Of a stretch of 64,000 nucleotides of DNA, positions 18,184 to 21,083 are shown piece by piece (position 1 is the first letter of the stretch; every line of letters starts with the position of its first letter). This DNA is from Solirubrobacteraceae bacterium (GTDB lineage: Bacteria; Actinomycetota; Thermoleophilia; Solirubrobacterales; Solirubrobacteraceae): positions 538,295 through 602,294 of the forward strand of contig JAUJOT010000001.1 in NCBI GenBank assembly GCA_030447505.1, given 5' to 3'. Position numbers and translations under genes: made by a program. Below the pieces are notes generated by a model. That model was given only the letters and a program-made list of their open reading frames with translations. It had not been told where the DNA came from and searched no databases.

Positions 18184-18255
18184 GCCCCCATGGTGTAGCG
18201 GTTAGCACGCCAGCCTTTCACGCTGGTAGCGGGGGTTCGATTCCCCCTGGGGGTA
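18184..18255 (+). tRNA. tRNA-Glu (UUC)
   Basis: The full cloverleaf is present: acceptor GCCCCCA/TGGGGGT, anticodon stem CCAGC/GCTGG with loop CTTTCAC giving anticodon TTC, and T arm GGGGG-TTCGATT-CCCCC. CCA is not encoded. Confidence 0.95.
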
Positions 18256-18283: not shown

Positions 18284-18592
18284 GGGCCGTTAGCTCAATC
18301 GGTAGAGCAAGGGACTTCGGTACGGAGCGCCAGTCGGGAGACCGCTGGTTTGTCGGCAGCTGTTTGCTGGGACCCCCTGAGAGCCTGAGGTACCGCTGGC
18401 GGTGACATCCTCAGGATTGGGCAATCAGCAGGCAACCCCGCAAGGGAGAGCCCTCAGAGGCCATACGCTGCCCACCCTAACGCGTTCAGGCGAGGGTGAA
18501 GAGATGGTCCAGACCGCAACGCCACGGCGGCCGGTGAGAGCCGGTGCGGCAGGTTAATCCCTAGGTTCTGGGTTCGAGTCCCAGGCGGCCCA
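18284..18592 (+). tRNA. tRNA-Lys (UUU) interrupted by a group I intron
   Basis: Two exons, 18284-18317 and 18554-18592, form a complete 73-nt tRNA: acceptor GGGCCGT/GCGGCCC, D arm GCTC/GAGC, anticodon stem AGGGA/TCCCT, and T arm CTGGG-TTCGAGT-CCCAG. Joining the exons gives the loop CTTTTAA, anticodon TTT (Lys). Discriminator A73 fits Lys. Moving both splice points one base would give GTT (Asn), but bacterial tRNA-Asn normally has G73, so Lys is preferred. The intron follows U34. Confidence 0.85.
18318..18553 (+). ncRNA. Group I self-splicing intron (tRNA type, IC3-like)
   Basis: This 236-nt insertion follows group I rules: the 5' exon ends in U (18317), the intron ends in G (18553). P1 pairs 18315-18319 with 18323-18327, placing U18317 opposite G18325. 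A GGGCAATC...GGCAACCCC segment (18419-18439) matches P4-P6 joining sequences of cyanobacterial tRNA-Leu introns. P7 is GGCCAT (18459-18464) with ATGGTCC (18504-18510). P8 is the hairpin CACCCT (18473-18478)/AGGGTG (18493-18498), followed by GAAGAGATGGTCC as in known IC3 introns. No open reading frame or homing endonuclease is inside. Confidence 0.85.
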
Positions 18593-19050: not shown

Positions 19051-19124
19051 GGGCGGTTAGCTCAGCTGGTCAGAGCGCCTGCCTTACAAGCAGGAGGTCC
19101 CCGGTTCGAGCCCGCGACCGCCCA
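19051..19124 (+). tRNA. tRNA-Val (UAC)
   Basis: Acceptor GGGCGGT/ACCGCCC, anticodon stem CCTGC/GCAGG with loop CTTACAA giving TAC, and a standard T loop TTCGAGC. 74 nt, no encoded CCA. Confidence 0.95.

Positions 19125-21009: not shown

Positions 21010-21083
<74 letters not shown>

What the first reader, a model, noticed from the sequence alone, without database searches (positions are those of the whole stretch)
18284..18592. tRNA-Lys gene split by a self-splicing group I intron
Both tRNA exons are perfect and the 236-nt insert has the group I hallmarks: 5' exon U paired with G in P1, terminal G, P7, P8, and a P4-P6 joining segment like those of cyanobacterial tRNA-Leu introns. Bacterial tRNA introns I know of are in tRNA-Leu(UAA), tRNA-Arg(CCU), tRNA-Ile(CAU) and tRNA-fMet; tRNA-Lys(UUU) would be a different host, after U34. 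It holds no homing endonuclease.
Basis: partly seen in the sequence, partly recalled or inferred. Interest (0 to 1): 0.85.

Follow-up and report, generated by a model that had tools for sequence, protein, structure and literature searches.

The report
Ribozyme-split tRNA-Lys gene, phage-related
In this soil-type actinobacterium the only gene for the lysine tRNA that reads AAA is cut in two by a 236-base self-splicing RNA intron, and the closest known relatives of that intron sit at or one base from the same spot in lysine tRNA genes of bacterial viruses.

Summary
Confirmed. Window 18284-18592 is a tRNA-Lys(UUU) gene interrupted after U34 by a 236-nt group I intron (18318-18553). The exons splice to a complete tRNA-Lys. 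RF00028 matches over its full length (45.0 bits, E 3e-10; below the 50-bit gathering score). P1-P9, the U·G pair at the 5' splice site and the terminal G are all there, and 23 base pairs change on both sides among 14 homologues. The intron is in 13 of 232 genomes of the order, including the complete genome of strain Svornostia abyssi J379. Five intron-less relatives tested, one from the same genus, carry one intact tRNA-Lys(UUU); ten intron-bearing genomes tested carry none. The split gene is therefore the only AAA reader and must be spliced, although AAA is very rare here. Three of these are the nearest relatives found, and one carries a PD-(D/E)XK homing-endonuclease gene. A 2014 review knew no phage tRNA introns. 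It is an ordinary group I ribozyme in a host tRNA that I found no credible report of, with phage relatives. Direction of transfer is not shown; splicing is untested experimentally.

The parts
18284..18317 (+). 5' exon of tRNA-Lys(UUU): acceptor 5' strand, D arm, anticodon stem 5' strand, C32-U33-U34
   Evidence: Spliced product scored by ARAGORN as tRNA-Lys(ttt)
18318..18553 (+). Group I intron, 236 nt
   Evidence: RF00028 45.0 bits, E 3e-10, model 1-253/253; orthologues in 12 other genomes; compensatory changes
18554..18592 (+). 3' exon of tRNA-Lys(UUU): U35-U36-A37-A38, anticodon stem 3' strand, T arm, acceptor 3' strand and discriminator base
18315..18327 (+). P1: CUU^C (18315-18318) with the internal guide GGAG (18324-18327); U34-G wobble at the 5' splice site
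   Evidence: Read from the sequence; CUUC...GGAG is kept in all 13 bacterial copies although the loop between varies in sequence and length
18330..18348 (+). P2 hairpin with GNRA loop GAGA/GAAA (18338-18341)
   Evidence: 6 of 7 pairs change on both sides somewhere in the alignment
18355..18360 (+). P3 5' strand, pairs with 18467-18472
   Evidence: 5 of 6 pairs change on both sides, 100% of cells paired
18365..18370 (+). P4 5' strand (element P), pairs with 18425-18430 (element Q, UCAGCA)
   Evidence: Invariant in 14 sequences
18459..18463 (+). P7 5' strand GGCCA (element R), pairs with UGGUC at 18505-18509 (element S): the guanosine-binding helix
   Evidence: Invariant; aligned to RF00028
18473..18498 (+). 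P8 stem-loop (CACCCU/AGGGUG)
18514..18549 (+). P9 region: CCGCA/UGCGG stem and inner hairpin with GNRA loop GAGA/GAAA
   Evidence: Compensatory changes in both helices
18553..18553 (+). Terminal guanosine of the intron, directly before the 3' exon
   Evidence: Sequence; G in all 13 bacterial copies and in all phage copies

Best explanation
[quoted passage not shown] In the precursor the intron folds on the P3-P8 and P4-P6 domains. Guanosine held in P7 attacks after the U34 that pairs with G in P1; the freed 3' OH of U34 then attacks after the terminal G. The joined exons form an ordinary tRNA-Lys(UUU). The intron is small and carries no mobility gene. It belongs to a tRNA-Lys(UUU) intron lineage that also lives in tRNA genes of tailed phages, where one copy carries a PD-(D/E)XK (PF11645) homing-endonuclease gene. 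Most likely the bacterial copies derive from such mobile introns and have lost the endonuclease. Shown: anatomy, homology, gene-level presence and absence, and that no second tRNA-Lys(UUU) gene was found. Inferred: splicing in the cell, and transfer between phage and bacterium and its direction (the confidence below is for the spliced group I intron, not for the direction of transfer).
For: Exons splice to a complete tRNA-Lys(ttt). Full-length RF00028 match, E 3e-10. Intron in 13 of 232 genomes of the order, over five genera and two families. 96.1% of cells paired against 89.7% in shuffles; 23 pairs with changes on both sides against 7.0. Intact tRNA-Lys(UUU) found in all 5 intron-less genomes tested and in none of 10 intron-bearing genomes. 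The own genome's 45 other tRNAs include only tRNA-Lys(CUU). Phage tRNA-Lys(UUU) introns are the best matches outside the bacterial set: 128, 118, and 67+33 bits, against at most 53 for other group I introns. The phage endonuclease gene matches PF11645 at 2.3e-18.
Against: No RNA data. The Rfam score is below the curated cut-off. P10 pairing is weak. AAA is very rare (5 AAA against 162 AAG in 23 long window ORFs, and 4 of the 5 AAA lie in one doubtful ORF), so selection to keep splicing may be weak. Phage and bacterial introns are divergent, branches between them are long, and the tree does not give a direction.
Confidence: 0.93

Rival explanations
1. The split gene is a dead tRNA copy whose intron no longer splices; AAA is read by another tRNA.
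For: AAA codons are extremely rare in the window; the Rfam score is below the gathering score.
Against: No other tRNA-Lys(UUU) gene in the genome; exons and catalytic helices intact in 13 genomes, with compensatory changes.
Confidence: 0.04
2. The insert is removed by protein enzymes (bulge-helix-bulge endonuclease type) rather than by its own ribozyme.
For: Position in the anticodon loop.
Against: Group I core with P7, guide pairing, U-G wobble and terminal G; archaeal canonical introns sit at 37/38 (PMC8450103), not 34/35; I know of no such enzyme in bacteria.
Confidence: 0.01
3. The intron is an old vertical inheritance of Solirubrobacterales, and the phages picked it up from bacteria (a rival to the origin part of the best explanation only).
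For: In six of seven genomes of the window's genus and all three of genus g11; conserved neighbour tRNA-Glu in the loci.
Against: Patchy: 13 of 232 genomes, absent from one same-genus member (G006), one of seven genomes in g9. The G060 intron from another family is 90% like the window genus but 83.5% like its own genus mate, though the clade test is not significant (p 0.084). Phage copies are more diverse and one carries a homing endonuclease.
Confidence: 0.3
4. Assembly or binning artefact.
For: Many copies are from metagenome-assembled genomes.
Against: Same structure in 13 independent assemblies including the complete genome CP088295.1.
Confidence: 0.005

Closest known systems
Group I introns of cyanobacterial/plastid tRNA-Leu(UAA) (Paquin 1997; from my own knowledge, also cited in PMC8450103 and PMC5733544)
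   Same: Small ORF-less group I intron in a tRNA anticodon loop, after U34 (position recalled, not tested here)
   Different: Host is tRNA-Lys(UUU) in Actinomycetota; sequence not compared directly
tRNA-Ile(CAU) introns (Azoarcus, Acidovorax, Burkholderia) and tRNA-fMet introns (Synechocystis, Gloeobacter)
   Same: Bacterial tRNA group I introns that make tRNA finders miss the gene (PMC8450103)
   Different: Other tRNA and other insertion position
tRNA-Lys(UUU) introns of tailed phages found here (L144, L150, L151, L154, L156, L157/L159, L160)
   Same: Same host tRNA; sites 34/35 or 35/36; three (L144, L150, L151) are the closest sequence relatives
   Different: Phage genomes; L150 carries a PF11645 endonuclease gene; 193-708 nt; some at 35/36; L154 and L156 have a more divergent core
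'Group I introns' reported in cyanobacterial tRNA-Lys(CTT), tRNA-Arg and tRNA-Gly (PMC5733544)
   Same: Claimed tRNA-Lys host
   Different: Those inserts are 22-49 nt, too short to hold a group I core, so I do not count them as group I introns
Group I introns in 23S rRNA of other Thermoleophilia (L033-L061)
   Same: Group I core, same class of bacteria
   Different: Host is 23S rRNA; at most about 31 bits to the tRNA-Lys intron profile

Membership tests
Group I intron | Conserved core with elements P, Q, R, S and helices P3-P8 | tested here: met
   RF00028 over 1-253; P3, P5a, P9 covary, P4 and P7 invariant
Group I intron | U-G wobble at the 5' splice site in P1 | tested here: met
   U34-G in CUUC/GGAG, kept in all 13 bacterial copies
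Group I intron | Terminal guanosine at the 3' end of the intron | tested here: met
   G in all 13 bacterial and all phage copies
Group I intron | Rfam curated gathering score (50 bits) | tested here: not met
   45.0 bits. A screening cut-off, not a structural feature; related phage tRNA-Lys introns L144 and L151 score 56.5 and 58.7
Group I intron | Guanosine-initiated splicing in vitro | not testable with these tools
   Needs an in vitro transcription assay
Subgroup IC3 (bacterial tRNA introns) | GNRA loops on P2 and P9, compact peripheral domains | tested here: met
   GAGA/GAAA loops in both hairpins; that these mark IC3 is from my own knowledge
Subgroup IC3 (bacterial tRNA introns) | Best score with an IC3 subtype covariance model | not tested
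   No subtype models available
tRNA-Lys(UUU) gene | Joined exons form a complete tRNA with lysine anticodon | tested here: met
   ARAGORN tRNA-Lys(ttt)

The most novel reading that the evidence does not exclude
tRNA-Lys(UUU) anticodon-loop introns are a mobile lineage that circulates among tRNA-rich tailed phages with the help of a PD-(D/E)XK homing endonuclease, and from there has homed into the chromosomal tRNA-Lys gene of Solirubrobacterales, perhaps more than once. Phage tRNA arrays would then be a reservoir of bacterial tRNA introns.
Probability: 0.45. Interest if true: 0.68.

Novelty: new member of a known kind. Interest (0 to 1): 0.52.

Why it matters
Standard tRNA finders miss this gene, so genomes of this group look as if they lack any tRNA for AAA. 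tRNA-Lys(UUU) is a host gene for which I found no credible earlier report of a group I intron. The sharing of the intron with phage tRNA genes gives a testable route for how such introns reach bacterial chromosomes. A 2014 review (PMC3984707) states that all phage introns seen up to then were in protein genes, so phage tRNA introns themselves deserve a survey. A strain with a complete genome (Svornostia abyssi J379) makes splicing testable.

Tried and rejected
Default Rfam scan: no group I hit, because the score is below the gathering value; resolved with an E-value search on the short stretch. ARAGORN with introns called the gene tRNA-Asn(gtt), because it shifts the splice site by one base; the group I splice rules (U before, G last) and every homologue give Lys(UUU). 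Minimum-free-energy folding is not informative: z -1.55. Viral pattern hits L145 and L146 have no group I match and no tRNA and are taken as chance. Acinetobacter phage hits are introns near the terminase gene, not in tRNA. Inter-family transfer judged from G060 is suggestive only (p 0.084). No plasmid match. The claim of cyanobacterial tRNA-Lys group I introns (PMC5733544) was examined and not accepted, because the inserts are 22-49 nt. First alignment A1 used wrong coordinates for L133 and mixed in the divergent L154; it was replaced by A2. A pattern search of the own genome with a guessed reverse-strand motif was badly designed and is not used; one search replaces it.

Full report
OBSERVATION. 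The window lies in a 3.84-Mb assembly of 13 contigs, 72% G+C in the window. Records holding the same intron are named Solirubrobacteraceae, Solirubrobacterales or Thermoleophilaceae, among them the complete chromosome of Svornostia abyssi J379. ARAGORN and the Rfam tRNA model find tRNA-Glu at 18184, tRNA-Val at 19051 and tRNA-Asp at 21010, and nothing between the first two. The bases 18284-18317 and 18554-18592 join to a 73-nt tRNA-Lys with anticodon UUU. The 236-nt insert matches RF00028 from the first to the last model position at 45.0 bits, E 3e-10, and is the only RF00028 hit in the genome. Rfam's gathering score is 50, which is why a default scan does not show it.

ANATOMY. The last exon bases CUU and the first intron base C pair with GGAG, with a U34-G wobble at the splice site. 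P2 ends in a GNRA loop. P3 is GGCAGC/GCUGCC, P4 UGCUGG/UCAGCA, P7 GGCCA/UGGUC, P8 CACCCU/AGGGUG. P9 carries a second hairpin with a GNRA loop. The last base is G. On 14 homologues this hand-made structure pairs in 96.1% of cells (shuffles 89.7 +/- 0.4), has 23 pairs with changes on both sides (shuffles 7.0 +/- 2.0), and falls to 33-50% paired when the partners are slid. P3 is the clearest case: five of six pairs are exchanged completely between sequences with no break. P4, P5 and P7 do not vary and say nothing. The 5' strand of P1 is misaligned for some rows, so P1 is undercounted there. For the phage copy L150 the endonuclease gene was cut out before alignment. The structure was drawn on the window sequence, so the fraction paired leans towards it; the counts of two-sided changes do so less.

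DISTRIBUTION. In the order, 13 of 232 genomes have the intron: six of seven in the window's genus, three of three in genus g11, one of seven in g9, one in g18, and two of three in genus g42 of another family. All 13 splice to tRNA-Lys(ttt). The genus member without it (G006) has an intact tRNA-Lys(UUU). A pattern for an uninterrupted UUU anticodon loop and T arm finds exactly one copy in each of five intron-less genomes and none in ten intron-bearing ones. The 45 other tRNAs of the window genome include tRNA-Lys(CUU) but no tRNA-Lys(UUU). Since C34 is not expected to read AAA, the split gene should be the only AAA reader; this follows from decoding rules. AAA is nearly absent: 5 AAA against 162 AAG in 23 long window ORFs, and four of the five lie in one doubtful ORF.

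OTHER GROUP I INTRONS IN THE CLASS. The other RF00028 matches among 399 Thermoleophilia genomes for which a locus was read lie near 23S rRNA landmarks, except one locus without a landmark (L059, near another 23S hit in the same contig). No second tRNA host was seen in the class.

PHAGE RELATIVES. Pattern scans of IMG/VR and a search of a phage collection found tRNA-Lys(UUU) genes split by group I introns in phage contigs. L150, L154, L156 (LR756508.1, a 484-kb phage genome) and L160 are split at 34/35. L144, L151 and L157/L159 (near-identical) are split at 35/36. All splice to tRNA-Lys(ttt); of the L157/L159 pair only L157 was run. Rfam group I matches were seen for L144, L151 and L156; L154 is called by its splice anatomy and a weak profile match, and L157 and L160 by the core sequence and splice anatomy. 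LR756508.1 also has a tRNA-Arg(UCU) split at the same site, and L153 a tRNA-Leu(UAA). The contigs are tRNA-rich (41 tRNAs in the 74-kb contig of L144), and the L150 contig holds a terminase gene; for the other contigs the phage label is IMG/VR's. A profile of the 13 bacterial introns scores L144 at 128 bits, L151 at 118 and L150 at 67+33 (two pieces around its gene). The next best group I introns reach 53 bits. The L150 intron encodes a 164-aa protein matching PF11645 (PD-(D/E)XK endonuclease) at 2.3e-18. From memory, that family includes the endonuclease of the Synechocystis tRNA-fMet intron; this was not tested.

INTERPRETATION. The best reading is a functional group I intron without its own mobility gene, inserted between U34 and U35 of the only tRNA-Lys(UUU) gene. 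It comes from a lineage that is also found in phage tRNA genes. The patchy spread and the closer likeness of the G060 intron (family f2) to the window genus (90%) than to its own genus mate (83.5%) suggest movement between bacteria. The test that holds the two f2 introns together is not significant (p 0.084), and branches to the phages are long. The direction between phage and bacterium is therefore open.

LITERATURE. [quoted passage not shown] PMC8450103 reports fMet and Ile2 introns as a cause of missing tRNA calls. PMC5733544 reports tRNA-Lys(CTT) introns of 22-49 nt as group I; these are too short. The huge-phage paper PMC7162821 does not contain the word intron in its main text; that LR756508.1 comes from that study is from memory. 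I found no earlier report of a real group I intron in tRNA-Lys(UUU) or in phage tRNA genes in the held open-access library, which lacks most subscription journals.

VERDICT. The observation and the interpretation hold. It is a new member of a known kind. The new host tRNA is of moderate interest; the shared tRNA-Lys introns of phages and bacteria raise it.

Noticed in passing
L102, L109; L103-L113, L126 similar by eye: Group I introns in tRNA-Asn(GUU) genes, after U35, in other classes of Actinomycetota; RF00028 up to 99.6 bits. I recall no report of this host.
   Followed up: partly
L114, L119: Group I introns in a CAU-anticodon tRNA (likely tRNA-Ile2) in another actinomycetal family.
   Followed up: partly
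L156 675-943 and 1074-1325 (LR756508.1): A 484-kb phage genome has two neighbouring tRNA genes, Lys(UUU) and Arg(UCU), both split after U34 by very small group I introns (193 and 175 nt); a HEARO (HNH endonuclease-associated) RNA with 144 bits lies just downstream at 1473-1697.
   Followed up: partly
L153 2993-3293: Phage contig with tRNA-Leu(UAA) split after U34 by a group I intron, the host tRNA and site known from cyanobacteria.
   Followed up: partly
L150 3567-4061 (- strand): PF11645 PD-(D/E)XK endonuclease gene inside a phage tRNA-Lys(UUU) group I intron.
   Followed up: partly
L144 907-1449; L159 8341-9225 and 12757-13662; L154 6835-7725: Free-standing HNH or homing-endonuclease-like genes among phage tRNA arrays that hold split tRNA genes.
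   Followed up: no
window genome G000: No tRNA-Gly(GCC) among the 45 tRNAs found; may be an assembly gap or another hidden gene.
   Followed up: no
window, long ORFs: AAA is almost unused (5 against 162 AAG), so the split tRNA serves a very rare codon.
   Followed up: partly
L028 (CAMCUD010000009.1): Record titled Bifidobacterium breve carries the Solirubrobacterales-type tRNA-Lys intron; the organism name looks wrong.
   Followed up: no
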